Positions 3,025-63,993 of a stretch of DNA of 64,000 bases are shown piece by piece; positions within the stretch are counted from its first letter, which is position 1, and each line of letters opens with the position of its first letter. The position numbers and the translations under genes are program-made. The stretch spans positions 62,001-126,000 of IMG/VR virus record IMGVR_UViG_3300043464_001630. The stretch is one strand, 5' to 3'. Source of the DNA: a virus. The notes below the pieces were generated by a model that made no database searches, was not told where the DNA came from, and saw only the letters and a list, made by a program, of their open reading frames with translations.

Positions 3025-3030
3025 TATTTA
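3025..3030 (-). promoter_or_regulatory. Late promoter element TTAAATA
   Basis: TTAAATA followed by TTTTT and ATG at 3019: 5 nt spacing. It decides the start of the downstream gene. Confidence 0.75.
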
Positions 3031-3042
3031 ACATCAAAATAC

Positions 3043-3074
3043 AAAAAACCCCACCATTTCTGGTGGGGTTTTAT
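3043..3074 (-). terminator. Rho-independent terminator
   Basis: Stem CCCCACCA / TGGTGGGG with a 4-nt loop, flanked by A and T runs on both sides. It ends minus-strand transcription of the gene at 3103-3744 (T run in minus sense). Confidence 0.85.
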
Positions 3075-3102
3075 GCCTACGAAAACTTAAACAACAACAA
3101 AA

Positions 3103-3744
3103 TTAGATTTCAATAGCAAAGCGACGACGTTCATTAGGCCCACGATTATCAAAACCGATAGCACCAGTCACAACTTGTGTAGCAGTGGCGGTAGCCACTG
3201 TGAATGTAGTAGTGGAACGATCTGGGAAATAAAGACTAAAAGTTGCGCCGTCGTATTCTGGAGCTACCTTAAATTGAATACGATCAGCTACAGAAAGTGT
3301 AACACTGGCAGTAGATGCACCAGAGAGTTCATCAAAAAGAATTCCATTTACAGGTACTCCGTTGTAGCTACCAGAAGAGAAAATAGAAGTAGCAGTGATA
3401 CGAGAAGTTAATACATCAACTTGTGTACTGAGTAAGGGAGTAGATGCATAAATTGCGGTAAGCGCACCGAATTGTAGATCTGTATATTTCGTATTCAATG
3501 GAATACCACTTGCGACCCAACCAGCAAAAAATCCAGAAAGAACAGAACTTCCAGTGATAGCAGTATTTTGTGTAGAACTAAGTGGAGGAGTAGTAAATAC
3601 TGTATTAGGAACTGCGGTAGCGGTGTTAAAAACAGTTACAGTGGGAAGAAAAACTACAGAATTATTAGATGCAGAAAGACTAACTCCAATTTGAGGAGGA
3701 TTTTCTGCTGCTGAATTGAATACGAAATTCGTAAATGTTGCCAT
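3103..3744 (-). CDS. Putative virion protein, Ser/Thr/Val-rich
   Basis: 213 residues, almost all Ser, Thr, Ala and Val in beta-type alternation (e.g. TTTFTVATATATQVVTGAIG), few charges until the C-terminal GPNERRRFAIEI. No motif identifies an enzyme. It has its own late element 5 nt before ATG and its own strong terminator, so it is a single-gene late transcript, as expected for an abundant virion protein (decoration protein, head fibre or tail component). No homology is claimed. Confidence 0.6.
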   Translation of the reverse strand: MATFTNFVFNSAAENPPQIGVSLSASNNSVVFLPTVTVFNTATAVPNTVFTTPPLSSTQNTAITGSSVLSGFFAGWVASGIPLNTKYTDLQFGALTAIYASTPLLSTQVDVLTSRITATSIFSSGSYNGVPVNGILFDELSGASTASVTLSVADRIQFKVAPEYDGATFSLYFPDRSTTTFTVATATATQVVTGAIGFDNRGPNERRRFAIEI

Positions 3745-3749
3745 ATTTT

Positions 3750-3755
3750 TATTTA
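3750..3755 (-). promoter_or_regulatory. Late promoter element ATAAATA
   Basis: ATAAATA, 5 nt (aaaat), then ATG at 3744. Divergent from the plus-strand element at 3787. Confidence 0.75.
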
Positions 3756-3786
3756 TCTTTATATGACTATTTTTTCAATTATAAAG

Positions 3787-3792
3787 TAAATA
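3787..3792 (+). promoter_or_regulatory. Late promoter element GTAAATA
   Basis: TAAATA, 5 nt (atagt), then ATG at 3798; it decides that start. Confidence 0.75.
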
Positions 3793-3797
3793 ATAGT

Positions 3798-4070
3798 ATG
3801 AATTTCGAAATGTTATTAGAAAGAATGGAACTACTAGAAGCCAAATGTACAAAGGTAACAAAGAAAGCACATTCAAACAGAAAAGGAAAAAAGTGGACTA
3901 AATGTGCTCGTCAATCTGATGGTAGTATTAAACGAATTCACTGGGGACAAGCAGGTGTGCGCGTAGGAAGTGGAAATTCCAAACGTGCTAAAAGCTTTCG
4001 TAAAAGGCATGGCTGTAGCAAAGCAAAAGCAGGAACTCCAAAAGCAATGAGCTGCAAAAATTGGAAATAG
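3798..4070 (+). CDS. Small basic cysteine-containing protein
   Basis: 90 residues from ATG 3798, chosen because TAAATA lies 5 nt upstream; a longer frame from 3735 would run through the promoter. The protein is very basic: KKAHSNRKGKKWTKCARQS, then HWGQAGVRVGSGNSKRAKSF, then RKRHGCSKAKAGTPKAMSC. The spaced cysteines (C-x(n)-C-x(n)-C near the end) could bind zinc, and the composition suggests nucleic-acid binding or a packaged core protein. The N-terminus MNFEMLLERMELLEAK contains L-L-E/A, a possible prohead-protease site. I recall similar small basic proteins in marine T4-like phages but cannot give a function. Confidence 0.65.
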   Translation: MNFEMLLERMELLEAKCTKVTKKAHSNRKGKKWTKCARQSDGSIKRIHWGQAGVRVGSGNSKRAKSFRKRHGCSKAKAGTPKAMSCKNWK

Positions 4071-4096
4071 CTTATTACCAAATACTTATAAAATAT

Positions 4097-4465: not shown

Positions 4466-4790
4466 TTAAGTATTTAATGTATAAATCTTTCGGATCTTCA
4501 AATAGATTAAAATAAGAACCGAATTTACTTCCCATGAAAAACGATTCACCATTCCATTCGTAAATTAAAGTATAGTCAGTATTATCTTCGTATTTCAAAA
4601 TGACATCATAATCTTCTATATATTCCGTAGAAATTTCTACTTCGAAGTCTTTACACATAAATTGGTGCTTGTCCATTATGTGATCTATGACAATATTCAT
4701 TTCTGTACTGATATAATCATATAACCCATCTTCGGATTCAATCCTCCACATCAATCTGTCTGGGTCGTAAAATCTACAAATCTTTTTCAT
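4458..4790 (-). CDS. Acidic hypothetical protein
   Basis: 110 residues, acidic and aromatic-rich (EDYDVILKYEDNTDYTLIYE). No family recognised. The ATG overlaps the stop of the upstream gene (shared base at 4790) and its 3' end overlaps the HNH gene, so it is translationally coupled on both sides. A passenger in the endonuclease island is likely. Confidence 0.6.
   Translation of the reverse strand: MKKICRFYDPDRLMWRIESEDGLYDYISTEMNIVIDHIMDKHQFMCKDFEVEISTEYIEDYDVILKYEDNTDYTLIYEWNGESFFMGSKFGSYFNLFEDPKDLYIKYLND
4471..4476 (-). promoter_or_regulatory. Late promoter element TTAAATA
   Basis: TTAAATA, 5 nt (cttaa), ATG at 4465; it lies within the 3' end of the neighbouring gene. Confidence 0.65.
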
Positions 4791-5440: not shown

Positions 5441-5445
5441 ATCAT

Positions 5446-5451
5446 TATTTA
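5446..5451 (-). promoter_or_regulatory. Late promoter element ATAAATA
   Basis: TAAATA, 5 nt (atgat), ATG at 5440. Confidence 0.65.
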
Positions 5452-5976
5452 TAAGTACTTTTTTAATTCTGAATATATTACCAATCTTTCGTCTTTATTC
5501 TTAAAGATCAGTTCTTTCAAATTATTAATAATTGATTTATTAAATTCTGTATCTTTCGTACTTTCTAAAAAGTTTGTGAATTCTATTTGACCTAGTTCAC
5601 AAAAATCCGCAGGAAGCATTGCTTTCTGATCAATAAAGCCGTGTGGATAATCATTAAACTTGTCTTTATTGCTGATTAAATCTCTGAAATAATAATCGAT
5701 AGCTTCCGAATTTAATTGCACGAAATAAGGAATTCTTATTAATTTAAATCCCAAATCATTTGCTACTCGATTTTTTATTTTATCAGAAATGATTTGTTTA
5801 GAAGAATTGAAATGTCGATACCCATCAAATTCTACGATTAATTTATGATCGTAAAAAATATAATCATATCGTCCTCGTATATTAGATTCTTTTAAGACTC
5901 TGTCGTTTTCGAAATTATCAGAGAATCTTTGCCTGAGGAAATCACCAAGTAAATTTTCGGTTAAATATTCTTTCAT
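5449..5976 (-). CDS. PD-(D/E)XK / DUF559-like endonuclease
   Basis: 175 residues. Residues about 32-90 have a restriction-endonuclease-like core: YDYIFYDHKLIVEFDGYRHF, then KNRVANDLGFKLIRIPYF. This matches the DUF559/Vsr-type pattern D...VEFDGxxH...D..R...L...G..(L/I)IRI. Such domains occur as nuclease modules of phage homing endonucleases. The gene starts 1 nt after the stop of the zinc-finger protein at 5978-6454, so the pair may be a two-subunit form of an enzyme often found fused (DNA-binding N-part, nuclease C-part). Confidence 0.65.
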   Translation of the reverse strand: MKEYLTENLLGDFLRQRFSDNFENDRVLKESNIRGRYDYIFYDHKLIVEFDGYRHFNSSKQIISDKIKNRVANDLGFKLIRIPYFVQLNSEAIDYYFRDLISNKDKFNDYPHGFIDQKAMLPADFCELGQIEFTNFLESTKDTEFNKSIINNLKELIFKNKDERLVIYSELKKYL

Positions 5977-5977
5977 T

Positions 5978-6454: not shown

Positions 6455-6508
6455 AGACCCCCAATATATCATCTCTTAATAAATTATCAATAAATTTTTA
6501 AATTATTT

Positions 6509-7301: not shown

Positions 7302-7307
7302 TATTTA
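7302..7307 (-). promoter_or_regulatory. Late promoter element GTAAATA
   Basis: TAAATA, 7 nt, ATG at 7294. Confidence 0.55.
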
Positions 7308-7426: not shown

Positions 7427-8983
7427 TTAAAAATATATTGAGCTGTTACCGGGCGTAAATGCCTGACCAAGATTCTTGAGAATAATGGTGTGGTAGTATA
7501 AACTAGCTCCGAAGATGTTATCTACCACCCCATATCTCGTCAATAGTCCAACGCGAGGAGCGAAGTCATTCGGTCCGATTGTGCGTTGTACCATTACAGG
7601 AATGTAAGGGCAATAGATGATACCAGAATCATAAAATTCAGTACCTTTGTATCCGAGGAGTGCATACTCGATGCCTTCTGGACCAGTACCAACTCCATAG
7701 CCTACGTCACCATAAACTCCACTGTTCTGTACTTCGGTGCGTGTATCACGATAAACTTGGAAACGACCACCGAGTGAACCAACTTTAGCTACGCCAGTTT
7801 GCTGGGTAGAAACGTTGCCTTGTACAGTTACCCACTGGAATTCGGGGAGCATTTCAAAAATAGCGCACACGCGAGGTGTTGCTACGATGAAGTTTGCTGG
7901 TCCACGACGATTGCGGATAGCGATACGATTTGCTTCAATAATTACTCTCTGGTAGAAGTCACGATTACGTTCAACAAGCCAACGGCCATCGGCAGTAGAT
8001 GGAGACCAGACTGAGAATCCTTTACGGAAACCACCATTTAAGGAGGTTTGGATCATACGGATAATCATTTCACGGTCGATTTCTGCTTGAATCTCATATG
8101 CCATTGCATTAGTGATTTCAGCGTCGATATCAATACCGTTCATGTTACGTAAGTCTTGCTCTAGCTCGACAGACCATTTTGCACCTAACCTACGAGTACC
8201 AGCTTCAACGGCAGTCTTCTCGAAGGATACTTCAACAGTTGGGATGTTTGCGTTGATTTCGAAATTCTTGAGAATTTCAGCAACACCACCATCAGCAGCA
8301 TTAAAGTTCCACGTTACGCCAGATTCGGCATGAGTACCGAGACCTGATAGCGCACCAGCAGAAACGCCAGTGAAACGTGAATCGAGATATTGCCATCCTA
8401 GTTCGTTGTCGCCTTGTGGGGACTTACCACCTGCTCCACCGGGAAGACCACTTCCGAAGTTATCACCAGAAGCTCTGTAATTTACAGTAGTTTGGTTATG
8501 AACTCCGGGGGCTGCATCCCAAGAACCACTCTGAGAGGAGTCTTGATAGTTGCCACCTAGGGTATCCTTGGAGTACTTATAACGTAGAGCGAATGCTAGT
8601 CCAACGGGACCAGACATGGGCTGAACGCCAACGATTTCGTTGGAGATAAGTTCTGGGAAGGTACGACGAATCATCGGAATAAGAATCTTAGGAAGACGAT
8701 TGTCGCCAGAAGCATAGCTATCAGAGCCACCGGGGAATGCTCCACCAGTGCCACCGTTGTTGATAGAACCGAACATAGTTCCTGTTCCACCAGCTACGTT
8801 TGCTTCACGTAAGCAATAAGCTTCTTGGTTTTCAAGTAGCATTGCAGTGTTTAGACGAGTATGATCATCTTCAATTGCGGCTACGCTCTTGCTGGTGTAG
8901 TCGAGCACTGGTGCCCACTTTTCCAAAAGAACCTTAGCGCGATCTTGATCGATGTATGATTGTGCGGGTTTGATTTGTTTCAT
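7427..8983 (-). CDS. 23: Major capsid protein, gp23-like
   Basis: 518 residues, the usual gp23 length. After a helical leader, residues 58-66 read LREANVAGG, matching the place where T4 gp23 is cut by protease gp21 (LNE/A, residue 65), so the mature protein should start at Ala61. The next block contains YASGDNRLPKIL (90-101) and RRTFPELISNEIVGVQPMSG, the HK97-type capsid core of the T4 family (compare IGVQPM in gp23). The C-terminus YGVVDNIFGASLYYHTIILK is also gp23-like. Codon use is richer in G+C at third positions than neighbours, as expected for high expression. It has two upstream late elements, a 40-nt leader, and its own terminator. Confidence 0.95.
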   Translation of the reverse strand: MKQIKPAQSYIDQDRAKVLLEKWAPVLDYTSKSVAAIEDDHTRLNTAMLLENQEAYCLREANVAGGTGTMFGSINNGGTGGAFPGGSDSYASGDNRLPKILIPMIRRTFPELISNEIVGVQPMSGPVGLAFALRYKYSKDTLGGNYQDSSQSGSWDAAPGVHNQTTVNYRASGDNFGSGLPGGAGGKSPQGDNELGWQYLDSRFTGVSAGALSGLGTHAESGVTWNFNAADGGVAEILKNFEINANIPTVEVSFEKTAVEAGTRRLGAKWSVELEQDLRNMNGIDIDAEITNAMAYEIQAEIDREMIIRMIQTSLNGGFRKGFSVWSPSTADGRWLVERNRDFYQRVIIEANRIAIRNRRGPANFIVATPRVCAIFEMLPEFQWVTVQGNVSTQQTGVAKVGSLGGRFQVYRDTRTEVQNSGVYGDVGYGVGTGPEGIEYALLGYKGTEFYDSGIIYCPYIPVMVQRTIGPNDFAPRVGLLTRYGVVDNIFGASLYYHTIILKNLGQAFTPGNSSIYF

Positions 8984-9023
8984 ATGTGTTTGTTTTCTTT
9001 CTTTTTTAGTTTCGACCTCAAGA

Positions 9024-9029
9024 TATTTA
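9024..9029 (-). promoter_or_regulatory. Late promoter element, proximal (capsid gene)
   Basis: TTAAATA followed by tCTTGAG; 40 nt before the capsid ATG, so this transcript has a leader, unlike most. Confidence 0.6.
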
Positions 9030-9048
9030 ATATCAGGATCTCAAGTAA

Positions 9049-9054
9049 TATTTA
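9049..9054 (-). promoter_or_regulatory. Late promoter element, distal (capsid gene)
   Basis: GTAAATA followed by ttaCTTGAG, 25 bp upstream of the proximal element; the two units look duplicated. Confidence 0.5.
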
Positions 9055-9085
9055 CTTCTACCAAATTTTTATAAGAGCAAATATA

Positions 9086-9973
9086 TTAGTATTTACTCAA
9101 TTCGTTCAAATAATTTGAAACGCTACCAAATTTTTCTTCGGTTGTTGCGACTTCTTCGATTGTATCTTCTTCTAATACAACACGATCTTGTTTAATTTGA
9201 CGATGTGTGAAAGCTTCTTCTTTTAAAGTCTGAAGACGTTCTTCTTCTTTCTTATCAAAAAGTGAAAGTGTGTAATCAATGTTCTCCATGATGAACTTAG
9301 GAGACTTACCTTCGAAAACACGTTGTGCATATTCTTTCTTCTTAGGACTTAGCTTAGAAGTCTTTTGTTCGAGAATTAATGCAGCCTTTGCCTTGGCAAG
9401 TGTTTCACGAAGTGTTGATACTTCTGATTTGGCTTCTTCTGCAACTTTACGTGATTCGGTGATTTGAGTTTTGCCGTCTAGAATAGCTTCTTTTAATGAG
9501 TCGTTCATTAATGCAGAATCAATTGCGAGACTTTCGCGAAGATTGTTTAGAATGATACGAGCTTTCTTGTTTTGAACGGCTTCTTCGATAGCTTTCTTTG
9601 GAATTTTGCTTTCGATAAATACGTCGATATAATCAGAAACTTTTCCTACCAAGTCAGACTTGAATTGTTTAGCTTGTTCGCTGATAACAGATTGATACTT
9701 ATTAACTACTGCTTTTAGTTTAGCGGTGTTATTAACGTCTAGTGCTTCTACAACTTTTTGTAATTTCTTGCTATGATCAGCATCGATAGCTTCTAAGAGT
9801 TGTTGTGCTTTTTCTGTATATTCAGAATCTTGTTCAGTTAGAGCTTTTTCTACGTGAATCTTTACTCGTTCATTAACAGCACTATCAAATGCTTCTTGAA
9901 TTTGGCCGAGTGTTTCGTCTGTTAAAATTCCTTGGGTAGCTTCTTTTAGAAGTTTTGTAATTTCAGTTGCCAT
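9086..9973 (-). CDS. 22: Prohead scaffold protein, gp22-like
   Basis: 295 residues, nearly all charged helix, forming the assembly core around which gp23 polymerises. The N-terminus is MATEITKLLKEATQG with L-K-E/A, and several further L-x-E or V-x-E sites follow (QQLLEAID, KVVEALD, LRESLA, LRETLA), as expected for a scaffold chopped by gp21. The C-terminal region (SPKKKEYAQRVFEGKSPKFI) resembles T4 gp22, where this helical part contacts capsid protein. Gene order gp21, core protein, gp22, gp23 is the T4 order. A TAAATA element is 19 nt upstream. Confidence 0.85.
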   Translation of the reverse strand: MATEITKLLKEATQGILTDETLGQIQEAFDSAVNERVKIHVEKALTEQDSEYTEKAQQLLEAIDADHSKKLQKVVEALDVNNTAKLKAVVNKYQSVISEQAKQFKSDLVGKVSDYIDVFIESKIPKKAIEEAVQNKKARIILNNLRESLAIDSALMNDSLKEAILDGKTQITESRKVAEEAKSEVSTLRETLAKAKAALILEQKTSKLSPKKKEYAQRVFEGKSPKFIMENIDYTLSLFDKKEEERLQTLKEEAFTHRQIKQDRVVLEEDTIEEVATTEEKFGSVSNYLNELSKY

Positions 9974-10658: not shown

Positions 10659-10664
10659 TATTTA
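10659..10664 (-). promoter_or_regulatory. Late promoter element CTAAATA
   Basis: TAAATA, 5 nt (aaaat), ATG at 10653; it overlaps the gp21 stop codon region. Confidence 0.7.
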
Positions 10665-11385: not shown

Positions 11386-11391
11386 TAAATA
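11386..11391 (+). promoter_or_regulatory. Late promoter element ATAAATA
   Basis: TAAATA, 5 nt (atcgt), ATG at 11397. Confidence 0.75.
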
Positions 11392-12894: not shown

Positions 12895-12900
12895 TATTTA
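12895..12900 (-). promoter_or_regulatory. Late promoter element TTAAATA
   Basis: TTAAATA, 5 nt (atata), GTG at 12889. Confidence 0.7.
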
Positions 12901-17299: not shown

Positions 17300-17305
17300 T
17301 ATTTA
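17300..17305 (-). promoter_or_regulatory. Late promoter element TTAAATA
   Basis: TTAAATA, 5 nt (attat), ATG at 17294; located between portal terminator and gene. Confidence 0.75.
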
Positions 17306-19593: not shown

Positions 19594-19599
19594 TATTTA
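19594..19599 (-). promoter_or_regulatory. Late promoter element GTAAATA
   Basis: TAAATA, 5 nt (gattc), ATG at 19588. Confidence 0.75.
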
Positions 19600-21227: not shown

Positions 21228-21233
21228 TATTTA
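21228..21233 (-). promoter_or_regulatory. Late promoter element ATAAATA
   Basis: TAAATA, 5 nt (atttc), ATG at 21222. Confidence 0.75.
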
Positions 21234-24042: not shown

Positions 24043-24071
24043 ATCCTACTGCTAGACAACAGAAAGATCAA
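24043..24071 (-). promoter_or_regulatory. Sigma70-like promoter TTGATC-N17-TAGGAT
   Basis: -35 at 24066-24071, -10 at 24043-24048, then 6 nt to ATG 24036; the expected start of transcription is next to the start codon. Confidence 0.65.
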
Positions 24072-24414: not shown

Positions 24415-24420
24415 TATTTA
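24415..24420 (-). promoter_or_regulatory. Late promoter element CTAAATA
   Basis: TAAATA, 6 nt (tcacaa), ATG at 24408. Confidence 0.7.
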
Positions 24421-24936: not shown

Positions 24937-25365
24937 CTATTTAGTTTTAGAAGACTCTTTCTTCTTAGCAATTCCGAACATGCGCTGTTCGTTCAGAAAC
25001 ATTCCCTTTTTTACCTTTCCGTATCCGTCAATTTCTAGATTAGCAACCGATACTCCTTTATCATTCGGAAAGATGACGATATCGTCTTTCTTGCAGTAAG
25101 ACACGTTAGGCCCAGTTAACACGACTTTCGCCTTCCTCCATGCCTTTGTATTCACGTTAGTTGGAACATACAGTCCATTACGCATTACAGCAGATCCCTT
25201 AGAATCTTCTACTTCATCAACAAATTCAACTAAAACAATGTCATCGAACACGAAAAAAAGCTTATAATCATCTAGTCCGAAAAATCCTTCGGAATTTGCA
25301 TCTAGATCGATCATTCCTTTTTTATGCTTAACATTATCCATGTGAGAAGGTACTTCTATAGCCAT
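24937..25365 (-). CDS. 31: GroES/gp31-like co-chaperonin
   Basis: 142 residues. The C-terminal 100 residues follow the GroES fold: FVFDDIVLVEFVDEVED, a mobile-loop-like segment SKGSAVMRNGLYVPTN, KAWRKAKVVLTGPNVSYCKK, DDIVIFPNDKG and KGMFLNEQRMFGI. T4 gp31 replaces GroES so that host GroEL can fold gp23, and this is the expected role here. It carries about 30 extra N-terminal residues. A sigma70-like promoter ends 5 nt before the ATG. Confidence 0.65.
   Translation of the reverse strand: MAIEVPSHMDNVKHKKGMIDLDANSEGFFGLDDYKLFFVFDDIVLVEFVDEVEDSKGSAVMRNGLYVPTNVNTKAWRKAKVVLTGPNVSYCKKDDIVIFPNDKGVSVANLEIDGYGKVKKGMFLNEQRMFGIAKKKESSKTK
24938..24943 (-). promoter_or_regulatory. Late promoter element CTAAATA
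   Basis: TAAATA, 5 nt (gttat), GTG at 24932; it overlaps the stop region of the co-chaperonin gene. Confidence 0.7.
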
Positions 25366-32524: not shown

Positions 32525-32552
32525 ATTATAAACTAAAATGAATAAAATTCAA
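32525..32552 (-). promoter_or_regulatory. Sigma70-like promoter TTGAAT-N16-TATAAT
   Basis: -35 at 32547-32552, perfect -10 at 32525-32530, 6 nt to ATG 32518; the -35 lies in the end of rmlB. Confidence 0.7.
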
Positions 32553-33485: not shown

Positions 33486-33513
33486 AATTTATCAGTTTGT
33501 CTAAATAATTCAA
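33486..33513 (-). promoter_or_regulatory. Sigma70-like promoter TTGAAT-N16-TAAATT of the sugar operon
   Basis: -35 at 33508-33513, -10 at 33486-33491, 5 nt to ATG 33480. The late element of the divergent gene (33502-33507) lies inside its spacer. TAAATT could also be read as a weak late element. Confidence 0.6.
33502..33507 (+). promoter_or_regulatory. Late promoter element CTAAATA
   Basis: TAAATA, 6 nt (attcaa), ATG at 33514; interlocked with the opposite-strand sugar-operon promoter. Confidence 0.7.
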
Positions 33514-35316: not shown

Positions 35317-35345
35317 ATTATAACAGCCAAGGATGATAGAATCAA
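35317..35345 (-). promoter_or_regulatory. Sigma70-like promoter TTGATT-N17-TATAAT
   Basis: -35 at 35340-35345, perfect -10 at 35317-35322, 6 nt to ATG 35310. Confidence 0.8.
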
Positions 35346-35380: not shown

Positions 35381-35386
35381 TAAATA
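35381..35386 (+). promoter_or_regulatory. Late promoter element CTAAATA
   Basis: TAAATA, 6 nt (atattg), ATG at 35393. Confidence 0.7.
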
Positions 35387-37161: not shown

Positions 37162-37563
37162 TTATTTAATTTCGATTACCGCTTTAATGGGTTTCAAGAA
37201 CTTTAAACCAATTAAAACTTTCTCGTCGTTGTCTTTTCTATCGCCTATCGAAAACTTAACATTTTTGTGTGTTTGTTTTTTAATTTCCATGTCAAATTCC
37301 ACGACTGGACGATCTTCGTGTGTTCCTGCTCCTACATTCACTTTTATGGTATCAATTAAAGGCTTCTTGATTGTTTTACCATCAATTGTATCAAATGATA
37401 CCTCATTACCATTTATAGAGATATTGTCTCCGTGTAAAACACAATATCCATCATTGCCGCTATCTACTTTAGCTTTATAATTACCAACACCAAGAATTTT
37501 CACATTTTCTTTCTGTGAAAATTCTTCAGTGTTTTCGTAAAAATATCTGCTAAACGAGATCAT
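37162..37563 (-). CDS. Retropepsin-like aspartic protease domain (RimB/PF05618 type)
   Basis: 133 residues. The blocks YKAKVDSGNDGYCVLHGDNI, VNVGAGTHEDRPVVEFDMEI and FSIGDRKDNDEKVLIGLKFL follow the small retropepsin-like family linked to RimK-type ATP-grasp ligases (formerly called putative ATP-dependent zinc protease), with D-S-G as the catalytic triad. Similar proteins are seen in T4-like marine phages. It could process a virion or host protein. It starts 1 nt from the end of the upstream gene. Confidence 0.7.
   Translation of the reverse strand: MISFSRYFYENTEEFSQKENVKILGVGNYKAKVDSGNDGYCVLHGDNISINGNEVSFDTIDGKTIKKPLIDTIKVNVGAGTHEDRPVVEFDMEIKKQTHKNVKFSIGDRKDNDEKVLIGLKFLKPIKAVIEIK
37163..37168 (-). 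promoter_or_regulatory. Late promoter element TTAAATA
   Basis: TTAAATA, 5 nt (atgtt), ATG at 37157; inside the end of the gene at 37162. Confidence 0.7.
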
Positions 37564-37993: not shown

Positions 37994-38434
37994 TTATTTA
38001 GCTTTTTTCCAACTTTGGAAGAAGCTTTCTCCCATAGTTTCTGAAGCAGGTTCGTACAACCCCTTTCCAAGATTAGAATTTATCACCTTTTCCATTTCCG
38101 ATAACTTAGAAGTATAGTCAGCTCCACTCATCGAAGCTTCTTCTAAATTTTTAAGAAATTCTTCTAATTCTGGAGACAAGCGAGTTTTTTCTTTATCTGT
38201 AGAGGCTTCGCGAATAAAAGAAACGATGTTATTAATCATGTCATACACCCTTCTTTGTGATTTTTCAATCATTTCTTGCATCTGCTTCGCCTGATCATCT
38301 TGTTCTGGCAATCCTTCCTCGCCCATTCCCGATTTCTGGGGGGTTTCTGGAGTTTCTGGTACATTTTGACCCTGAGGAGGATTTTCCTGTTCTAGCAAAG
38401 TATAATGAGTTTCTAAAAGGCTTTTAAATTTCAT
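37994..38434 (-). CDS. Putative internal head protein
   Basis: 146 residues. The N-terminus MKFKSLLETHYTLLEQENPP has two L-L-E sites followed by T or Q, then a Pro/Glu/Gln-rich linker (PQGQNVPETPETPQ) and acidic helices. This matches the style of capsid-targeting leaders in this window. Late element 7 nt upstream. Function unknown. Confidence 0.55.
   Translation of the reverse strand: MKFKSLLETHYTLLEQENPPQGQNVPETPETPQKSGMGEEGLPEQDDQAKQMQEMIEKSQRRVYDMINNIVSFIREASTDKEKTRLSPELEEFLKNLEEASMSGADYTSKLSEMEKVINSNLGKGLYEPASETMGESFFQSWKKAK
37995..38000 (-). promoter_or_regulatory. Late promoter element CTAAATA
   Basis: TAAATA, 5 nt (aggtt), ATG at 37989. Confidence 0.75.
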
Positions 38435-38440: not shown

Positions 38441-38953
38441 TTATTTATGCAACAAATTTTTTAAACTGAGATCTTCTTCAACTTTTTTGCCAATAAATCT
38501 AAGATTTGAAGTTTTGCAAAATTCTTTTAATTTTTTGTAGTTTATACTTTTTTTGTTCTGCAAGAATTTTTTCAACGAATAAATATTGTTATTATCAATT
38601 ACAAAATTTGTAGAAATTTCAAATAAAGAATAATTAAATATTTTTGTTGACTTTGTAATTATTTTATGTAAAATAGATTTACAATCTTTTTCTGCATATA
38701 AATTATGCAAAGTCTTTAATTCATATTCTGGATTAAAAATTAATATATTATTGTAATCTTCTTTTAAGTGTTTAATTATTTCTTCGTTGAGAAAATGTAA
38801 TATTATTTTACTTAAATCTCTGCTGTTAATTTTTAATTTTAAATTATTATCAAATAAGTAATTACCTATTACTGTTTCTATTTTTTCTTGTAAAAGATAA
38901 TTTAAATTTATTATATTAATATTATATTCTGTTAATATAACGTTTAAGAACAT
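38441..38953 (-). CDS. Hypothetical protein, very AT-rich
   Basis: 170 residues rich in Asn, Lys, Ile and Leu (KLKINSRDLSKIILHFLNEE), with DNA more AT-rich than its neighbours, which may mark recent acquisition. No family recognised. A TAAATA element is only 2 nt from the ATG, so either a later start is used or the element is fortuitous. Confidence 0.5.
   Translation of the reverse strand: MFLNVILTEYNINIINLNYLLQEKIETVIGNYLFDNNLKLKINSRDLSKIILHFLNEEIIKHLKEDYNNILIFNPEYELKTLHNLYAEKDCKSILHKIITKSTKIFNYSLFEISTNFVIDNNNIYSLKKFLQNKKSINYKKLKEFCKTSNLRFIGKKVEEDLSLKNLLHK
38442..38447 (-). promoter_or_regulatory. Late promoter element ATAAATA
   Basis: TAAATA, 7 nt, ATG at 38434. Confidence 0.55.
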
Positions 38954-38955: not shown

Positions 38956-38961
38956 TATTTA
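38956..38961 (-). promoter_or_regulatory. Possible late promoter element ATAAATA
   Basis: TAAATA 2 nt before ATG 38953; atypical spacing. Confidence 0.35.
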
Positions 38962-39038
38962 TCTTAACTTAAAAAAATTAATTGTCAAGTAAAAATTTTA
39001 AAGAAAAATGAAAAAAGTTGAAAAAACTTAATTATTGG

Positions 39039-39044
39039 TAAATA
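39039..39044 (+). promoter_or_regulatory. Late promoter element GTAAATA
   Basis: TAAATA, 7 nt, ATG at 39052. Confidence 0.55.
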
Positions 39045-39051: not shown

Positions 39052-39477
39052 ATGGAATGGGAAAATATACCCGAAGACGTTAATAATTGGTTTGGTTTTG
39101 TATATTGCATCGAAAGATTGAATGCAAAAGAAGGAGAGAAACGTTATTATTGGGGATGTAAACAATTTATACGAAATTCTAAATTACCGCCATTAAAAGG
39201 TAAAACTCGCAAAAGAAAAGTAGTAAAAGAATCTGACTGGAGAAATTACTACGGAAGTAGCGAAGAGCTAAAAAAAGATGTAGCAGAACACGGAAAAGAA
39301 AATTTTAAACGTACAATTTTAAAATTATGTACTTGTAAATGGCAATTAAAGTACGAAGAGTTGAAGACGCAATTAGAGAATGATGTACTGCTAAGAAGAG
39401 ACTCGTACAACGGCATTATCCATGCTCGTATAAACTTCTGTCCCAAGAGTTTACACGAACACTACAATATATTATAG
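39052..39477 (+). CDS. GIY-YIG-like (Seg-type) endonuclease
   Basis: 141 residues. FGFVYCIERLNAKEGEKRYY then WGCKQF in place of GIY...YIG, followed by WRNYYGSSEELKKDVAEHGK and NFKRTILKLCTCKWQLKYEE, the arrangement of diverged phage Seg-type nucleases (FVY-C...YYG-S...G...F...L). Likely a free-standing homing endonuclease. It ends 6 nt into the convergent small gene. Confidence 0.6.
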   Translation: MEWENIPEDVNNWFGFVYCIERLNAKEGEKRYYWGCKQFIRNSKLPPLKGKTRKRKVVKESDWRNYYGSSEELKKDVAEHGKENFKRTILKLCTCKWQLKYEELKTQLENDVLLRRDSYNGIIHARINFCPKSLHEHYNIL

Positions 39478-39648: not shown

Positions 39649-39675
39649 TGCAATATTTAACTCTAATGTTATAAT
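39648..39675 (+). promoter_or_regulatory. Sigma70-like promoter TTGCAA-N16-TATAAT (uvsY)
   Basis: -35 at 39648-39653, perfect -10 at 39670-39675, 10 nt to ATG 39686. Confidence 0.6.
39654..39659 (-). promoter_or_regulatory. Late promoter element TTAAATA
   Basis: TTAAATA, 5 nt (ttgca), ATG at 39648; lies inside the spacer of the opposite-strand uvsY promoter. Confidence 0.7.
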
Positions 39676-41517: not shown

Positions 41518-41545
41518 TTGAATTATTATGGTTTTGAGGTATAAT
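41518..41545 (+). promoter_or_regulatory. Sigma70-like promoter TTGAAT-N16-TATAAT (gp55)
   Basis: -35 at 41518-41523 immediately after the uvsW stop, perfect -10 at 41540-41545, 9 nt to ATG 41555; it supports that start rather than the ATG at 41528. Confidence 0.7.
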
Positions 41546-41554
41546 GCTTATTAT

Positions 41555-43030
41555 ATGGAAATACCACTGGATTTATCAAATTCTCCTAAAAAGTTAAAAG
41601 AACAATTTTATGTAGATCCTGAAAAATTTAAAAAAGCTATTAAGGAATATTATGTAGATGGTGAATGTACGGAATATCTTGGGGGTTGTTTGAATAAAAT
41701 TGCTGAAGGATTAGGTTATAATCCTAAGTTCATAAATTATTGTGTTGACGAAGAAACAGAAGCGTTAACTAAACGCGGATGGTTAAAATACGATCAAATA
41801 ACCCTAAATGATAAGATTTTATCTTATGATGTTAATACTAAAAACTTAGTATGGAGTAATATTATAGATGTGTTTGTGGGTCATCATAATGATTTGATGT
41901 TTAAATTGACTAATATCGGACTTGATGCATTGGTTACCCCCAATCATAAATTTGTAAGTTTGAAAGATGGTATCAAGCCAATCGAAGAATTCCGAACTGA
42001 TGATCATTTAGTTTTGATGGGATCTCATGTTTCTGATGAAAATCAAACGGAAAAATACTCAAATGAATTTGTTCAATTAGTAGGATGGGCTGTTACCGAA
42101 GGAAATTACTTATTAGGTAAACGAACCAACTCTGTTCAGATCTTCCAAAAAGAAGGAGAAAAGGCAGATAGGATCAGAAAAATTCTAAGCGTTCTAAACG
42201 AAGATTACAAGGAATATAACTGGACAAATCCAGAAATTAAGTGCTTCCGCCTTAAGGGTAATACCGCCAATCAAATTGTTGAGAAAGCCGCCAATAAGAT
42301 TGTTAGTATGGATTTCATTCTGGATTTAACACAAAATCAAAGAATGCTTTTGATAGAAACGATGATATCAGGAGATGGCTGGCGCAGAAATAGTATCGAA
42401 AATAAAACAAATTGGTCATATTCCCAGCAAAATAAAGAACACGTAGATAATTTTATTGCTTTATGTACTATAGCTGGATTAAGTACTTCTACACATTTTA
42501 ATACCAAACTGAGAGGTTTTACCAAAAAGCCTTATTATATTGTAAATATCTTTCTTGAGCCTAAGAAGACTTGTTTTTTCGAAAATGTTAACATGTATGG
42601 AGGAAGAGCGAAAGCTGGAGGAAATCGACGAAATGGTAATATTATTCCGAATACGCCAACTGTTCCTTACGATGGAGCTATTTGGTGTCCTCAAACTGAA
42701 TACGGAACATTTGTTTGCAGAAGAGGAAAGTACGTATATATTACTGGAAATTCTTACAAGGAAGATATGATTGGAGATGCACTCATTAAGATGTTCAGTG
42801 CATTAAAGCGTAAGAAGTTTAACGTTGACTCTGAAACTTCGCCATTTGGCTATTTTACTACAATAGCATTCCATGCATTTATTAATAGAATCAAGAAAGA
42901 AAAGAAGCACCACGATACTTTGGTAGAGTATCGACAAAGAAAGTACGAAGAAGAATTGTCTTCTTCTGAAGGGCATATTTACGTAAAGCCTATCTTGGAT
43001 TCTACAGAAGAAGAATTAGTTTTGGAATAA
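41555..43030 (+). CDS. 55: Late sigma factor gp55-like, interrupted by an intein
   Basis: 491 residues from ATG 41555; 337 of them (41741-42751) are an intein, leaving 154 of sigma factor. Exteins read KIAEGLGYNPKFINY joined to SYKEDMIGDALIKMFSALKR, then PFGYFTTIAFHAFINRIKKE, the region-2-like core of T4-type gp55. gp55 redirects host RNA polymerase to TATAAATA late promoters, with gp33 and the gp45 clamp. The recurrent TAAATA elements of this window are its expected targets. Sigma70-like promoter upstream. Stop overlaps the next ATG (TAATGA). Confidence 0.9.
   Translation: MEIPLDLSNSPKKLKEQFYVDPEKFKKAIKEYYVDGECTEYLGGCLNKIAEGLGYNPKFINYCVDEETEALTKRGWLKYDQITLNDKILSYDVNTKNLVWSNIIDVFVGHHNDLMFKLTNIGLDALVTPNHKFVSLKDGIKPIEEFRTDDHLVLMGSHVSDENQTEKYSNEFVQLVGWAVTEGNYLLGKRTNSVQIFQKEGEKADRIRKILSVLNEDYKEYNWTNPEIKCFRLKGNTANQIVEKAANKIVSMDFILDLTQNQRMLLIETMISGDGWRRNSIENKTNWSYSQQNKEHVDNFIALCTIAGLSTSTHFNTKLRGFTKKPYYIVNIFLEPKKTCFFENVNMYGGRAKAGGNRRNGNIIPNTPTVPYDGAIWCPQTEYGTFVCRRGKYVYITGNSYKEDMIGDALIKMFSALKRKKFNVDSETSPFGYFTTIAFHAFINRIKKEKKHHDTLVEYRQRKYEEELSSSEGHIYVKPILDSTEEELVLE
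41741..42751 (+). mobile_element. Intein with LAGLIDADG homing endonuclease in gp55 (337 aa)
   Basis: Starts with Cys (CVDEETEALTKRGWLKYDQI, block A), block B LDALVTPNHKFVSL, the two dodecapeptide motifs LVGWAVTEGNYL and LIETMISGDGWR (blocks C and E), and ends WCPQTEYGTFVCRRG then KYVYITGN before Ser. Splicing joins KFINY to SYKED. The penultimate residue is Gly instead of His. Confidence 0.93.
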
Positions 43031-43764
43031 TGAAAAGATTGGGATTTACATTTAAAGAATTGTACGAATCTATAATAGAAGATAATATTTTATTAGAAGG
43101 TTTACAATACACACATTATTCTAATGTAACTTTAACGCATATTATACAAGAATTCGGAAACATACTTTTGGGTAAGTATTGCAGATCTAGTGCCGATTTA
43201 AAATCTACCAGTCCTAAAGAATTTATAGATTTGGTTCATTTAGTACCTTTGGCAGATAATGAAGAATTGAGGAAAAGAATGAAATTTTTTGGTTATCATT
43301 ATTCCATAACCAAACTCATTTCTCCCGAAGAAATGGAATTTTTTAAATTTCCTAGCAAATATAAAAATGTATACGTTTCTACATTTGAGGGAACATATCC
43401 TACTTTAGTAGAAAGAAATAATTTGCCAAGAATTTTATATCATGTTACTTTAAGAAAAAATGCAGAAGAAATAAAAAAACGCGGATTGCTTACCAAAGCC
43501 TCAAAGACTTCGTTTGATCATCCTTCTAATAGAATATATTTATTTGCTACTGTAAATCCTTCTTCTGACTTACCTAAGTTAATTCGAATTTTGGCAAAAA
43601 ACAAAAAAGAAGTCACAAGCGAATACGTAATATTGAAGATTGTGGATTATTATCCAACAGGAGAAAAGTTTTTTCTAGATCCTTCTATGGATATAGGAGA
43701 TGTTTCGAACACTTGTCGAGGAATTTTTGTACACAGAGCAATCCATCCGAAATTTATTGACTAA
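43030..43764 (+). CDS. ADP-ribosyltransferase/KptA-like protein with possible targeting peptide
   Basis: 244 residues. The C-terminal ~110 residues read RILYHVTLRKNAEEIKKRGL, DHPSNRIYLFATVNPSSDLP and EYVILKIVDYYP, like the RNA 2'-phosphotransferase (Tpt1/KptA) and ADP-ribosyltransferase fold (H..T...I...GL...R-I-Y-L-F). The N-terminus FKELYESIIEDNILLEGLQY includes L-L-E/G, similar to gp21-processed leaders. It is coupled to gp55. A function analogous to T4 Alt (head-delivered ADP-ribosylation of host RNA polymerase) is a hypothesis only. Confidence 0.5.
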   Translation: MKRLGFTFKELYESIIEDNILLEGLQYTHYSNVTLTHIIQEFGNILLGKYCRSSADLKSTSPKEFIDLVHLVPLADNEELRKRMKFFGYHYSITKLISPEEMEFFKFPSKYKNVYVSTFEGTYPTLVERNNLPRILYHVTLRKNAEEIKKRGLLTKASKTSFDHPSNRIYLFATVNPSSDLPKLIRILAKNKKEVTSEYVILKIVDYYPTGEKFFLDPSMDIGDVSNTCRGIFVHRAIHPKFID

Positions 43765-43784
43765 GCAGACAGTTCAGGTATCAT
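43757..43784 (+). promoter_or_regulatory. Sigma70-like promoter TTGACT-N16-TATCAT (gp47)
   Basis: -35 at 43757-43762, -10 at 43779-43784, 6 nt to ATG 43791. Confidence 0.7.
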
Positions 43785-47249: not shown

Positions 47250-47255
47250 TATTTA
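47250..47255 (-). promoter_or_regulatory. Late promoter element ATAAATA
   Basis: TAAATA, 6 nt (gttttt), ATG at 47243. Confidence 0.7.
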
Positions 47256-48526: not shown

Positions 48527-48555
48527 TTGATTAGTGTGTGTATGTTTGGTAGTTT
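48527..48555 (+). promoter_or_regulatory. Sigma70-like promoter TTGATT-N17-TAGTTT (gp43)
   Basis: -35 at 48527-48532, -10 at 48550-48555, 6 nt to ATG 48562. Confidence 0.6.
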
Positions 48556-53777: not shown

Positions 53778-53783
53778 TATTTA
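53778..53783 (-). promoter_or_regulatory. Late promoter element ATAAATA
   Basis: TAAATA, 6 nt (gttaat), ATG at 53771; abuts the -35 of the divergent promoter. Confidence 0.7.
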
Positions 53784-53811
53784 TTGATTTTTTGTTTATT
53801 TCTGTTAGATT
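53784..53811 (+). promoter_or_regulatory. Sigma70-like promoter TTGATT-N16-TAGATT
   Basis: -35 at 53784-53789, extended -10 TGTTAGATT ending 53811, 6 nt to ATG 53818. Confidence 0.65.
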
Positions 53812-58033: not shown

Positions 58034-58291
58034 ATGAATCATCCTATTAAACGACATGCATATGCAGTGACTACAGGAGCGTATGTAGGCGAAATAATGG
58101 TTTTTGTTAATAAAAATGAAGACTCATATAATTTCATATCTATACCTAAAAACATCAATAGAAGTATTCCTGTAGGCAAATTTGAAATTGGTCTAGATCA
58201 TTCAATTGTTGAACATGTAGAAGAAATACCAAATGATGTTTATTCTATTTTAGAGAAACAATTTGAATTTAATCAAAATTTAGATAAATAG
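58034..58291 (+). CDS. Hypothetical small protein
   Basis: 85 residues: HAYAVTTGAYVGEIMVFVNK, then SYNFISIPKNINRSIPVGKF. Beta-rich, unrecognised, 3-nt gap after the upstream gene, so part of the gp45 transcript. Its end carries the late element of the next gene. Confidence 0.6.
   Translation: MNHPIKRHAYAVTTGAYVGEIMVFVNKNEDSYNFISIPKNINRSIPVGKFEIGLDHSIVEHVEEIPNDVYSILEKQFEFNQNLDK
58285..58290 (+). promoter_or_regulatory. Late promoter element ATAAATA
   Basis: TAAATA overlapping the previous stop codon, 6 nt (gtattt), ATG at 58297. Confidence 0.65.
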
Positions 58292-58501: not shown

Positions 58502-58530
58502 TTGATTTTTAGAATCACTTTTGTTAGCAT
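58502..58530 (+). promoter_or_regulatory. Sigma70-like promoter TTGATT-N17-TAGCAT (primase)
   Basis: -35 at 58502-58507, extended -10 TGTTAGCAT ending 58530, 6 nt to GTG 58537. Confidence 0.65.
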
Positions 58531-59976: not shown

Positions 59977-59982
59977 TATTTA
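59977..59982 (-). promoter_or_regulatory. Late promoter element CTAAATA
   Basis: TAAATA, 5 nt (atttc), ATG at 59971; back-to-back with the plus element at 59994. Confidence 0.75.
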
Positions 59983-59993: not shown

Positions 59994-59999
59994 TAAATA
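59994..59999 (+). promoter_or_regulatory. Late promoter element GTAAATA
   Basis: TAAATA, 6 nt (attcta), GTG at 60006. Confidence 0.65.
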
Positions 60000-60005
60000 A
60001 TTCTA

Positions 60006-60347: not shown

Positions 60348-60354
60348 TTTTTTA

Positions 60355-60383
60355 TTGAAAAATAACAAAAACTAGAGTATTAT
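60355..60383 (+). promoter_or_regulatory. Sigma70-like promoter TTGAAA-N17-TATTAT
   Basis: -35 at 60355-60360, -10 at 60378-60383, 6 nt to ATG 60390. Confidence 0.7.
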
Positions 60384-60389
60384 TATTTA

Positions 60390-62293: not shown

Positions 62294-62296
62294 AAA

Positions 62297-63241
62297 TTAA
62301 AAATTTTGTCCACCAATAAACCCGTACCAATCAGATCCTACTTTTGTAAAAGCAAATACATCAGTTTTTCCAGTAGTTGTATTCACTACGGGAATCACTC
62401 CATTAGCCCATTTTACACTAATTCCTGCTATTGTAAAATTAACAGTAAATGTGCCTGTTTGGGTGATGAACATGGTAATACTGAAAGAATCGGTAGGAAT
62501 AGTTCCAGCTAAAGTGAAACCTGTGATATTTCCTGTTAAATTAATAGGAAAAGTGTTTCCATTATCTAAATTAAGAGATACCGATCCAGTACCAGTAACG
62601 AAACTAGACTTTTCCGAAAATCCTTTCAATACCAAAGATCCTGTCATTTCTCCACCACTGAGCGGAAGAAACTTACCGAATGGATTAAACTTATCTACGT
62701 ATTGCTTTGGTGCTGCATGTAAATTTTGAGTTGGATCTGCTGCTAGTACCAATGATCCAGTCATGGTGTCTCCGGATTTTAAAATGTAATTAGCAGTGCT
62801 TGGAATCGGAATAGCAGAAATTTTACTATTTAATGTTTTTAAATTAACAGCATCATAATCTAAAATTGGATCTTTTACATTAACGATAAAATTGTTATGT
62901 ACATCGACTTTTTGATTAAAGTGCGCTTCTCCAAATGCAGATAAAGTAGCATTAACCGATAAAGTTCCGTTCATCCTCTCTGTTGGAGCGAACGTCAAAC
63001 CATTTTTATCTAATTTATTCGCAATAGACTGAGAAATTGTATTTAGATTTGTTTGTAAATTATCTATTTGAGTTTGTACTGACGTATTAACTTCTGTTTT
63101 TATTTTAGAAGTTAAATTATCAAAAGAAACTTTTTTCGTAAAATATCCTCCAGTTGCGGGATCTGCTATATCAAACGCAGTAAAATCAGTACCCTTTACC
63201 GTGGTACTTTCTGCTAGTTTATTAATGAAAGAATCAGCCAT
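62297..63241 (-). CDS. Tail fibre protein
   Basis: 314 residues. Coiled-coil stretch (SVQTQIDNLQTNLNTISQSI), then two copies of the phage fibre repeat (LKSGDTMTGSLVLAADPTQN then LHAAPKQYVD; LSGGEMTGSLVLKG), and a C-terminal KVGSDWYGFIGGQNF. This matches fibres with 'GDTMTG...A..KYVD' units. The C-terminal beta domain is the likely receptor contact. Late element 5 nt before ATG. Confidence 0.85.
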   Translation of the reverse strand: MADSFINKLAESTTVKGTDFTAFDIADPATGGYFTKKVSFDNLTSKIKTEVNTSVQTQIDNLQTNLNTISQSIANKLDKNGLTFAPTERMNGTLSVNATLSAFGEAHFNQKVDVHNNFIVNVKDPILDYDAVNLKTLNSKISAIPIPSTANYILKSGDTMTGSLVLAADPTQNLHAAPKQYVDKFNPFGKFLPLSGGEMTGSLVLKGFSEKSSFVTGTGSVSLNLDNGNTFPINLTGNITGFTLAGTIPTDSFSITMFITQTGTFTVNFTIAGISVKWANGVIPVVNTTTGKTDVFAFTKVGSDWYGFIGGQNF

Positions 63242-63246
63242 ACATC

Positions 63247-63252
63247 TATTTA
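63247..63252 (-). promoter_or_regulatory. Late promoter element CTAAATA
   Basis: TAAATA, 5 nt (gatgt), ATG at 63241. Confidence 0.75.
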
Positions 63253-63253
63253 G

Positions 63254-63964
63254 TTATTTTGATTTGTGCATCAGTGATCCCACACTAGTCGGATCTGGAT
63301 TTCCTATATCAATATGTCCACTCAATGGCGATTGAATAATATAGAATGTTTCGATTTTTGTTTCGATTTCTGGTCTTGGTCTGAAAATAGTAGTCGGAAC
63401 TGCTGTGTTTCCTTGTATGTGTATGTCTTTTATATTAAAAATACATTTTTGTTCACCTGAATTAAGAGGAGAAGAATATCCAAATCCTATTCTGTAAAAA
63501 TCAGTATCACTAGCAGAGATTCCGGTATTAATAGAAGCTAATTTGACGTATCTATTCGTTTCTTTATTTTTCGCTGCTATTTTCAAAGTCTGAGCACAAT
63601 TTGTAAAATTAAAACGAATAGTATCAAATTCGTTGTTAGGTTTTATCAACGAAGACAACATCGGAAAAAGTGCAAAAGAAGTGATAGTAGTAAATGACGT
63701 TCCTCTTTTTATAGTTAATGTGTCGTTGCTGTCTATCATTACACCTAAAACTGCTCCGGTCACTCCTGATCTACTTTGATATGGTGCGAATCCAAGTCCT
63801 TCGTATGTACCCCCTCCTACTAACGTGGGATTGTTAAATAAAAAAGTAGAAAATCCTCCGGTGGAATTTGTTGATCCTGATAAATTATATCCAAATGACC
63901 ATGTAATGTCAAAATTGGCATTGAATGCGCTATTGATAAAAAAATTGCAAGAAGATTCTGACAT
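63254..63964 (-). CDS. Lectin-like (concanavalin-fold) virion adhesin
   Basis: 236 residues. TGGFSTFLFNNPTLVGGGTY then EGLGFAPYQSRSGVTGAVLG and VMIDSNDTLTIKRG resemble the phage L-type-lectin-like pattern (GGxxxGLGY...GxxLGVxxD). C-terminus returns to fibre-like sequence (IQSPLSGHIDIGNPDPTSVG). Late element 6 nt before ATG. Carbohydrate binding is inferred. Confidence 0.6.
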   Translation of the reverse strand: MSESSCNFFINSAFNANFDITWSFGYNLSGSTNSTGGFSTFLFNNPTLVGGGTYEGLGFAPYQSRSGVTGAVLGVMIDSNDTLTIKRGTSFTTITSFALFPMLSSLIKPNNEFDTIRFNFTNCAQTLKIAAKNKETNRYVKLASINTGISASDTDFYRIGFGYSSPLNSGEQKCIFNIKDIHIQGNTAVPTTIFRPRPEIETKIETFYIIQSPLSGHIDIGNPDPTSVGSLMHKSK

Positions 63965-63970
63965 CCTAAT

Positions 63971-63976
63971 TATTTA
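63971..63976 (-). promoter_or_regulatory. Late promoter element CTAAATA
   Basis: TAAATA, 6 nt (attagg), ATG at 63964; part of a perfect inverted repeat with the plus element. Confidence 0.75.
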
Positions 63977-63987
63977 GACTATATAAC

Positions 63988-63993
63988 TAAATA
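63988..63993 (+). promoter_or_regulatory. Late promoter element for a gene beyond the window
   Basis: CTAAATA on the plus strand; 5 nt later (63999-64000) the window ends in 'at', the likely start of an ATG. Confidence 0.6.

What the first reader, a model, noticed from the sequence alone, without database searches (positions are those of the whole stretch)
3025..63993. Late promoters sit 5-6 nt from start codons: a genome-wide leaderless late mRNA design
I find TAAATA elements (mostly C/G/T/A-TAAATA) before about 35 genes on both strands. In 27 the gap to the start codon is exactly 5 nt (20 cases: e.g. ATG at 3019, 3744, 3798, 10653, 11333, 15521, 17294, 19588, 63241) or 6 nt (7 cases: 24408, 33514, 35393, 47243, 53771, 60006, 63964). 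In T4 the TATAAATA late element lies at about -13 to -6, so the first transcribed base would be at or next to the start codon. GTG starts (12889, 13356, 24932, 60006) obey the same rule. Shine-Dalgarno sites are almost absent. The spacing regularity is seen; leaderless translation is inference.
Basis: partly seen in the sequence, partly recalled or inferred. Interest (0 to 1): 0.9.

Follow-up and report, generated by a model that had tools for sequence, protein, structure and literature searches.

The report
Phage lineage with leaderless messenger RNAs
In this uncultured T4-like giant phage and its many environmental relatives, both the early and the late gene switches sit so close to the genes that the messenger RNA should begin exactly at the start codon, a whole-genome leaderless design not seen in T4 or in the other T4-like phages checked here.

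Summary
The spacing is real. In the window TAAATA lies 5 nt (20 genes) or 6 nt (8 genes) before a start codon. Over 172 genes (window plus 80 kb elsewhere in the same 236-kb phage) gap 5 occurs 47 times against 0.8 in shuffles. It holds in over 100 IMG/VR relatives and is absent from T4, Synechococcus phage B23 and seven other T4-like phages, where TATAAATA boxes, when present, mostly lie about 15-50 nt from the start. The T4 box spans -13 to -6, so gap 5 puts +1 on the A of ATG. New here: early and replication genes show sigma70-type promoters (TTGAnn, 16-17 bp, TAnnnT) peaking at gap 6, which also puts +1 on the ATG. Two different promoters with different gaps predict one 5' end. Only ATG and GTG are enriched there; TTG and CTG are not. 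Shine-Dalgarno sites are nearly absent. Many other genes overlap the stop of the gene before, or have real leaders (major capsid, scaffold, gp32). Best reading: a lineage-wide leaderless design for both promoter classes, with stop-start coupling inside operons. RNA 5' ends are unmapped, so leaderlessness stays inferred. Host unknown.

The parts
3025..3030 (-). late promoter box TAAATA, gap 5 to ATG 3019 (baseplate hub/lysozyme-like)
3750..3755 (-). late box, gap 5 to ATG 3744
3787..3792 (+). late box, gap 5 to ATG 3798
4471..4476 (-). late box, gap 5 to ATG 4465
5446..5451 (-). late box, gap 5 to ATG 5440; its TAA is the stop codon of the upstream gene
7302..7307 (-). late box, gap 7 to ATG 7294
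8984..9060 (-). leader of the major capsid gene (exception): conserved hairpin, downstream purine-rich stretch, not leaderless
7427..8983 (-). major capsid protein gp23 homologue, leadered
10659..10664 (-). late box, gap 5 to ATG 10653; TAA is the upstream stop codon
11339..11344 (-). late box, gap 5 to ATG 11333 (gp21 head protease); 51 of 56 orthologues keep it at gap 5-7
11386..11391 (+). late box TATAAATA, gap 5 to ATG 11397
12895..12900 (-). late box, gap 5 to GTG 12889; TAA is the upstream stop codon
13362..13367 (-). late box, gap 5 to GTG 13356; TAA is the upstream stop codon
15527..15532 (-). late box, gap 5 to ATG 15521
17300..17305 (-). late box, gap 5 to ATG 17294 (head-tail adaptor)
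19594..19599 (-). late box, gap 5 to ATG 19588 (portal gp20)
21228..21233 (-). late box, gap 5 to ATG 21222
24043..24071 (-). early sigma70-type promoter TTGATC-17-TAGGAT, gap 6 to ATG 24036 (helicase)
24415..24420 (-). late box, gap 6 to ATG 24408
24938..24943 (-). late box, gap 5 to GTG 24932
32525..32552 (-). early promoter TTGAAT-16-TATAAT, gap 6 to ATG 32518
33486..33513 (-). early promoter TTGAAT-16-TAAATT, gap 5 to ATG 33480
33502..33507 (+). late box, gap 6 to ATG 33514
35317..35345 (-). early promoter TTGATT-17-TATAAT, gap 6 to ATG 35310
35381..35386 (+). late box, gap 6 to ATG 35393 (PhoH-like); 10 of 11 orthologues keep gap 6-7
37163..37168 (-). late box, gap 5 to ATG 37157
37995..38000 (-). 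late box, gap 5 to ATG 37989
38442..38447 (-). late box, gap 7 to ATG 38434
38961..38988 (-). early promoter TTGACA-16-TAAGAT, gap 7 to ATG 38953
39039..39044 (+). late-type box, gap 7 to ATG 39052 (only 3 of 32 orthologues have one, so uncertain)
39654..39659 (-). late-type box, gap 5 to ATG 39648 (70-aa ORF counted from a TTG 36 nt upstream; gene doubtful)
41528..43030 (+). gp55-like late sigma factor split by a probable intein (about residues 70-410)
43757..43784 (+). early promoter TTGACT-16-TATCAT, gap 6 to ATG 43791 (gp47); 24 of 39 orthologues early class
47250..47255 (-). late box, gap 6 to ATG 47243 (tail fibre-like)
48527..48555 (+). early promoter TTGATT-17-TAGTTT, gap 6 to ATG 48562 (DNA polymerase); 14 of 19 orthologues early class
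53778..53783 (-). late box, gap 6 to ATG 53771
53784..53811 (+). early promoter TTGATT-16-TAGATT, gap 6 to ATG 53818
58285..58290 (+). late-type box, gap 6 to ATG 58297 (67-aa ORF)
58502..58530 (+). early promoter TTGATT-17-TAGCAT, gap 6 to GTG 58537
59977..59982 (-). late box, gap 5 to ATG 59971
59994..59999 (+). late box, gap 6 to GTG 60006
60355..60383 (+). early promoter TTGAAA-17-TATTAT, gap 6 to ATG 60390
63247..63252 (-). late box, gap 5 to ATG 63241
63971..63976 (-). late box, gap 6 to ATG 63964

Best explanation
A lineage of T4-like phages uses leaderless mRNAs as its standard way of starting genes. Late genes have a gp55-type TAAATA box 5 (sometimes 6) nt before the start codon. Early and replication genes have a host-type sigma70 promoter whose -10 box ends 6 (5-7) nt before the start codon. 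In both cases transcription should begin at, or within a base or two of, the first base of an ATG or GTG, and the ribosome should start on the bare 5' end with no Shine-Dalgarno site. Genes without their own promoter are mostly coupled to the upstream stop codon (ATGA, TAATG), and a few highly made proteins (major capsid, scaffold, gp32) keep real leaders. Shown: box positions, two promoter classes, RTG-only starts, SD absence, conservation, absence in T4, B23 and seven others. Inferred: actual 5' ends, RNA polymerase usage, leaderless translation, host.
For: Gap 5: 47 genes against 0.82 shuffled, 0/500. Relatives by gp23: 235 genes at gap 5 and 52 at gap 6, other gaps mostly about 2-10. Relatives by gp55: TAAATA 101 at gap 5 and 52 at gap 6; sigma70 pair 85 at gap 6, 39 at gap 5, 33 at gap 7, background about 4. 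Choosing only TAnnnT at gap 6 and not asking for a -35, a TTG appears by itself at -34 to -32. T4 box position -13/-12 onward (PMC2988020). Annotation-free counts over 1.6 Mb: ATG 438 at gap 5 against 49 +/- 16, GTG 49 against 20 +/- 7, TTG 25 against 60 +/- 22, CTG 14 against 29 +/- 12; early: ATG 109 at gap 6 against 29 +/- 10, GTG 26 against 12 +/- 4, TTG 25 against 34 +/- 9. Orthologues keep class: late gives 149 late, 2 early, 99 neither; early gives 44 early, 0 late, 35 neither. SD words in 2% of late and 7% of early genes. In relatives, 111 promoter-less genes start at -4 and 44 at -1 relative to the upstream stop end. gp55 homologue present.
Against: No transcript or ribosome data exist here. 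About half of the genes in the window stretches have neither promoter under strict criteria (81 of 154), and not all of these are coupled. The T4 TATAAATA is reduced to (A)TAAATA: T at -13 is not conserved. A sliding clamp was not detected with the B23 clamp as query. Orthologue hits share ancestry, so counts over relatives are not independent.
Confidence: 0.87

Rival explanations
1. Ultra-short leaders: both boxes are real promoters, but RNA starts a few bases away from the start codon (1-8 nt leader or variable starts), so the mRNAs are near-leaderless rather than strictly leaderless.
For: Gaps of 6 and 7 are also over-represented, and start-site choice in bacteria can vary by one or two bases.
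Against: The late peak is sharply at 5 with gap 4 at or below background (23 ATG against 49), and the early peak at 6, exactly the registers predicted for +1 on the first base; TTG and CTG are not enriched, as expected if the codon itself is the 5' end.
Confidence: 0.09
2. TAAATA is not a promoter here but an A/U-rich translation signal in leadered mRNAs (Kozak-like or S1-binding), as proposed for SD-poor bacteria such as Bacteroidetes.
For: SD sites are absent; Flavobacterium johnsoniae has leadered, SD-less mRNAs with A-rich upstream preferences (PMC6847099).
Against: The match to the gp55 box is sequence-specific (permutations of TAAATA show no peak); A at -3 is not enriched (30-36%); early genes use a different sequence one base further away together with a -35 element 16-17 bp upstream; genes coupled to an upstream stop lack the box.
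Confidence: 0.02
3. The promoters are real but minor: late genes are mainly translated from long polycistronic mRNAs, and the leaderless transcripts add little.
For: Many late genes lie 4-13 nt behind another gene on the same strand, so readthrough mRNAs must exist.
Against: Those genes have no SD and, unlike promoter-less genes, rarely overlap the upstream stop, so an internal start on a polycistronic mRNA lacks a known signal; each has its own box, in 8 cases with the upstream stop codon TAA built into it.
Confidence: 0.02
4. Artefact of AT-rich composition or of choosing starts.
For: The genome is 67% A+T and TAAATA is common.
Against: Shuffles (0/500), the annotation-free count, and equally AT-rich controls B23, HTVC008M and AG-345-L05 without a peak.
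Confidence: 0

Closest known systems
T4 late promoters (gp55/gp33/gp45 system; TATAAATA at -13 to -6)
   Same: Same core box before virion genes; gp55 homologue encoded; no -35 hexamer in late promoters.
   Different: In T4 the box lies about 14-49 nt from the start codon (most often 27-28) and genes have SD sites (68-77%). Here the gap is 5 and SD is absent; box shortened to (A)TAAATA; gp55 carries a probable intein.
Synechococcus phage B23 and other Kyanoviridae
   Same: Closest gp55 in the phage collection, with the same intein-containing layout (43% identity) and similar gene order around gp55/47/46.
   Different: TATAAATA 23-42 nt from the start; no genes at gap 5 and one at gap 6; SD in 39% of uncoupled genes.
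Leaderless genes of mycobacteria and Deinococcus
   Same: Promoter directly before an RTG start, no SD (PMC4633059, PMC9031893).
   Different: Those are cellular genes, about 20-60% of the total; here a lytic phage does it with two promoter classes, one of them its own late promoter.
Lambda cI leaderless mRNA
   Same: A phage mRNA that starts with AUG (named in PMC9031893).
   Different: A single repressor gene of a temperate phage, not a genome-wide design.

Membership tests
T4-type late promoter system | gp55-like late sigma factor encoded | tested here: met
   41528-43030+, phrog_234 late sigma factor E 5.6e-21; intein-less relatives at 56-97% over the exteins
T4-type late promoter system | TATAAATA box | tested here: inconclusive
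   Core TAAATA kept; A at -12 in 66% of relatives; T at -13 not conserved
T4-type late promoter system | No -35 element in late promoters | tested here: met
   No -35 hexamer; only a weak A-rich stretch at -30 to -27
T4-type late promoter system | gp45 sliding clamp as activator | tested here: inconclusive
   PF02916 (control rang nowhere) and the B23 clamp found nothing; divergence not excluded
T4-type late promoter system | gp33 co-activator | not tested
   -
Leaderless gene organisation | Promoter register puts +1 on the start codon | tested here: met
   Late gap 5, early gap 6
Leaderless gene organisation | Start limited to ATG or GTG | tested here: met
Leaderless gene organisation | No Shine-Dalgarno site | tested here: met
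Leaderless gene organisation | Mapped RNA 5' end at the start codon | not testable with these tools
   needs infected cells
Bacteroidetes-type SD-less leadered translation | A at -3 preferred | tested here: not met
   A-3 30% and 36% in late genes
Bacteroidetes-type SD-less leadered translation | TTTG/TAnnTTTG promoters for early genes | not tested
   Early promoters found match TTGAnn/TAnnnT instead, but no scan for TAnnTTTG was run

The most novel reading that the evidence does not exclude
A whole lineage of lytic T4-like phages has moved both its early host-type and its late gp55-type promoters onto the start codons, so that nearly all promoter-proximal genes are expressed from leaderless mRNAs, with leaders kept only for a few very abundant proteins, among them a structured RNA leader on the major capsid gene.
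Probability: 0.8. Interest if true: 0.8.

Novelty: new variant of a known kind. Interest (0 to 1): 0.74.

Why it matters
Leaderless mRNAs are usually seen as a minority form in bacteria and as isolated cases in phages. A phage lineage that applies the rule to both of its promoter classes would be a natural system for studying leaderless initiation, would show that the T4 late promoter can be fused to the start codon, and gives a genome-wide prediction (5' ends on the start codon) that one dRNA-seq experiment can test. It also lets start codons and transcription units of these uncultured phages be annotated from promoters, and points to hosts that translate leaderless mRNAs well.

Tried and rejected
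(1) Kozak-like or Bacteroidetes explanation: rejected on A-3 and the sigma70 promoters. (2) WhiB as a marker of an actinobacterial host: none in 9 records. (3) Host through MAG contigs: the genome scan gave one distant T4-like contig (Paludibacteraceae MAG, 38% capsid identity, L088) without a clear peak (2 genes at gap 6, 1 at gap 7); its capsid found nothing further in IMG/VR. (4) Phage-encoded IF3: none in five records; ribosomal S21: not in this phage, present in one relative. (5) Rfam for the capsid leader: nothing. (6) Sliding clamp: not found. (7) Literature: ten searches; none of the papers listed describes leaderless early or late genes in T4-like or jumbo phages; AR9 leaders are 26-491 nt. 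(8) The comparison of GTG frequency between gene classes is biased by how starts were chosen, so one search was used instead.
Full report
Context. The window is bases 62001-126000 of a 236,391-base IMG/VR virus record. It is a T4-like myovirus: gp23 major capsid (phrog_138), gp21 protease, gp20 portal, tail sheath stabiliser, gp43 DNA polymerase, UvsX, gp46/gp47, gp32 and a gp55-like late sigma factor. It has no close relative among 50,697 phage records: no nucleotide match for bases 1-24000, portal and capsid about 30% identity. It has many relatives in IMG/VR.

Observation. TAAATA is not more frequent than chance, but its position is strongly fixed: 20 genes at gap 5 and 8 at gap 6 in the window. 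Over 172 genes of the same phage, 47 at gap 5 against 0.82 in shuffled upstream regions (0/500), 9 at gap 6 against 0.74. In loci around gp23 of relatives (66-95% capsid identity) 235 genes are at gap 5 and 52 at gap 6, other gaps mostly about 2-10. In loci around gp55, 101 and 52. Whole-record counts of TAAATANNNNNATG in eight records of the lineage exceed the reversed control in every one.

Controls. The same code on T4, B23, AG-345-L05, Melnitz, P-SSM4, C48C1, HTVC008M, phiM7 and DSL-LC02 finds zero to one gene at each of gaps 5 and 6; where TATAAATA occurs it is usually about 15-50 nt from the start. Only stretches of about 25-49 kb of these controls were scanned, for C48C1 and HTVC008M the replication region; the whole records of B23, T4, P-SSM4 and Melnitz were also counted. 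So the peak is not a property of AT-rich or of T4-like genomes in general.

What it is. In T4 the late box spans -13 to -6 (PMC2988020). A gap of 5 therefore places the first base of the start codon at +1. In the relatives the base at -12 is A in 66%, the same register as the T4 box.

Early genes. Genes without TAAATA often have TTGAnn, a 16-17 bp spacer and TAnnnT ending 6 nt before the start. Focal phage: 12 genes at gap 6 against 0.70 in shuffles (0/500). gp55 loci of relatives: 85 at gap 6 against a background near 4. When only TAnnnT at gap 6 is required, a TTG emerges at -34 to -32 (T 74%, T 56%, G 50%), so these are real promoters. In a sigma70 promoter -10 spans -12 to -7, so gap 6 again gives +1 on the start codon (established knowledge). 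These genes are DNA polymerase, gp47, a helicase and others; TAAATA genes are protease, portal, head-tail adaptor and baseplate genes. Orthologues almost never switch class: 2 of 250 from late to early, 0 of 79 from early to late.

Codon rule. Counted without gene calls on 1.6 Mb of the lineage, ATG and GTG are enriched at the predicted +1 after both promoters; TTG and CTG are not, and fall below background after TAAATA. This is the rule for leaderless initiation in mycobacteria, where ATG or GTG at the 5' end is necessary and sufficient and TTG or CTG are ineffective (PMC4633059). It would also follow from a purine preference at +1; either way it places the transcript start on the codon. Related sequences inflate the raw counts.

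The rest of the genes. SD words are nearly absent. Promoter-less genes typically overlap the upstream stop (in relatives 111 at -4 and 44 at -1), which suggests stop-start coupling. Late genes sitting 4-13 nt behind another gene still carry their own box; in 8 focal cases the upstream TAA stop is the first half of TAAATA. This makes sense if an internal start without SD or coupling would not be translated. Leadered exceptions are the major capsid gene (76 of 78 orthologues without a box at gap 5-7), the neighbouring scaffold-position gene (9086-9973) and gp32. The capsid leader has a hairpin with five pairs showing compensatory changes in 11 relatives and, in many relatives, an SD-like AAAGGAAA or AAGGAG before the ATG, so the host ribosome can probably use SD sites.

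Host. Unknown. Two DUF1501 genes occur in this phage and again in two relatives; the best of only five plasmid-collection hits is Singulisphaera (Planctomycetota), 47%. Together with sigma70-type promoters this weakly suggests a Planctomycetota/Verrucomicrobiota-type host; DUF1501 also occurs in control genomes of Caulobacter and Deinobacterium. No WhiB.

Verdict. Observation confirmed; leaderless reading strongly supported but not proven; extended to early genes. Parts known (T4 late promoters, leaderless mRNAs), combination and scale new as far as the searched papers show.

Noticed in passing
window 41528-43030 (+): The gp55-like late sigma gene carries a probable intein (500 aa; relatives encode about 140-160 aa without it; matches hint-domain and other intein-bearing phage proteins; Pfam Intein_splicing below cut-off). 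B23 has the same layout.
   Followed up: partly
window 8984-9060 (-), and the same place in L002-L080: Conserved structured leader of the major capsid gene: hairpin with compensatory changes followed by GGTCGAA and a purine-rich stretch; no Rfam family. Other branches show CCTGA/TGAGG repeats in the same place, possibly a kink-turn-like motif.
   Followed up: partly
L081:7100-8395 and L082:12244-13608: Two DUF1501 genes, also in records of L023 (two) and L005 (one); no match in the phage collection. Function in a phage unknown; possible host hint.
   Followed up: partly
L081:10760-12355: Protein with a Cas12f1/TnpB-like TNB domain in the same phage.
   Followed up: no
window 55228 (+) and 9973 (-), L082:5275 and 5741: Several leadered genes share AACTAATTAA-like sequence directly before the ATG; possibly a second leader type.
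   Followed up: no
late promoters of relatives, -30 to -27: Weak A-rich stretch upstream of the late box (A 47-57%, C and G depleted) where T4 has no conserved element.
   Followed up: no
L082 about 1800-3200: Sequences shaped like tRNA 3' ends lie upstream of several genes here; ARAGORN found no tRNA in the window itself.
   Followed up: no
window 5449-5976 (-) and 39052-39477 (+): HNH endonuclease-like gene, and a gene matching both phrog_447 (labelled NAD synthetase) and homing endonuclease families.
   Followed up: no
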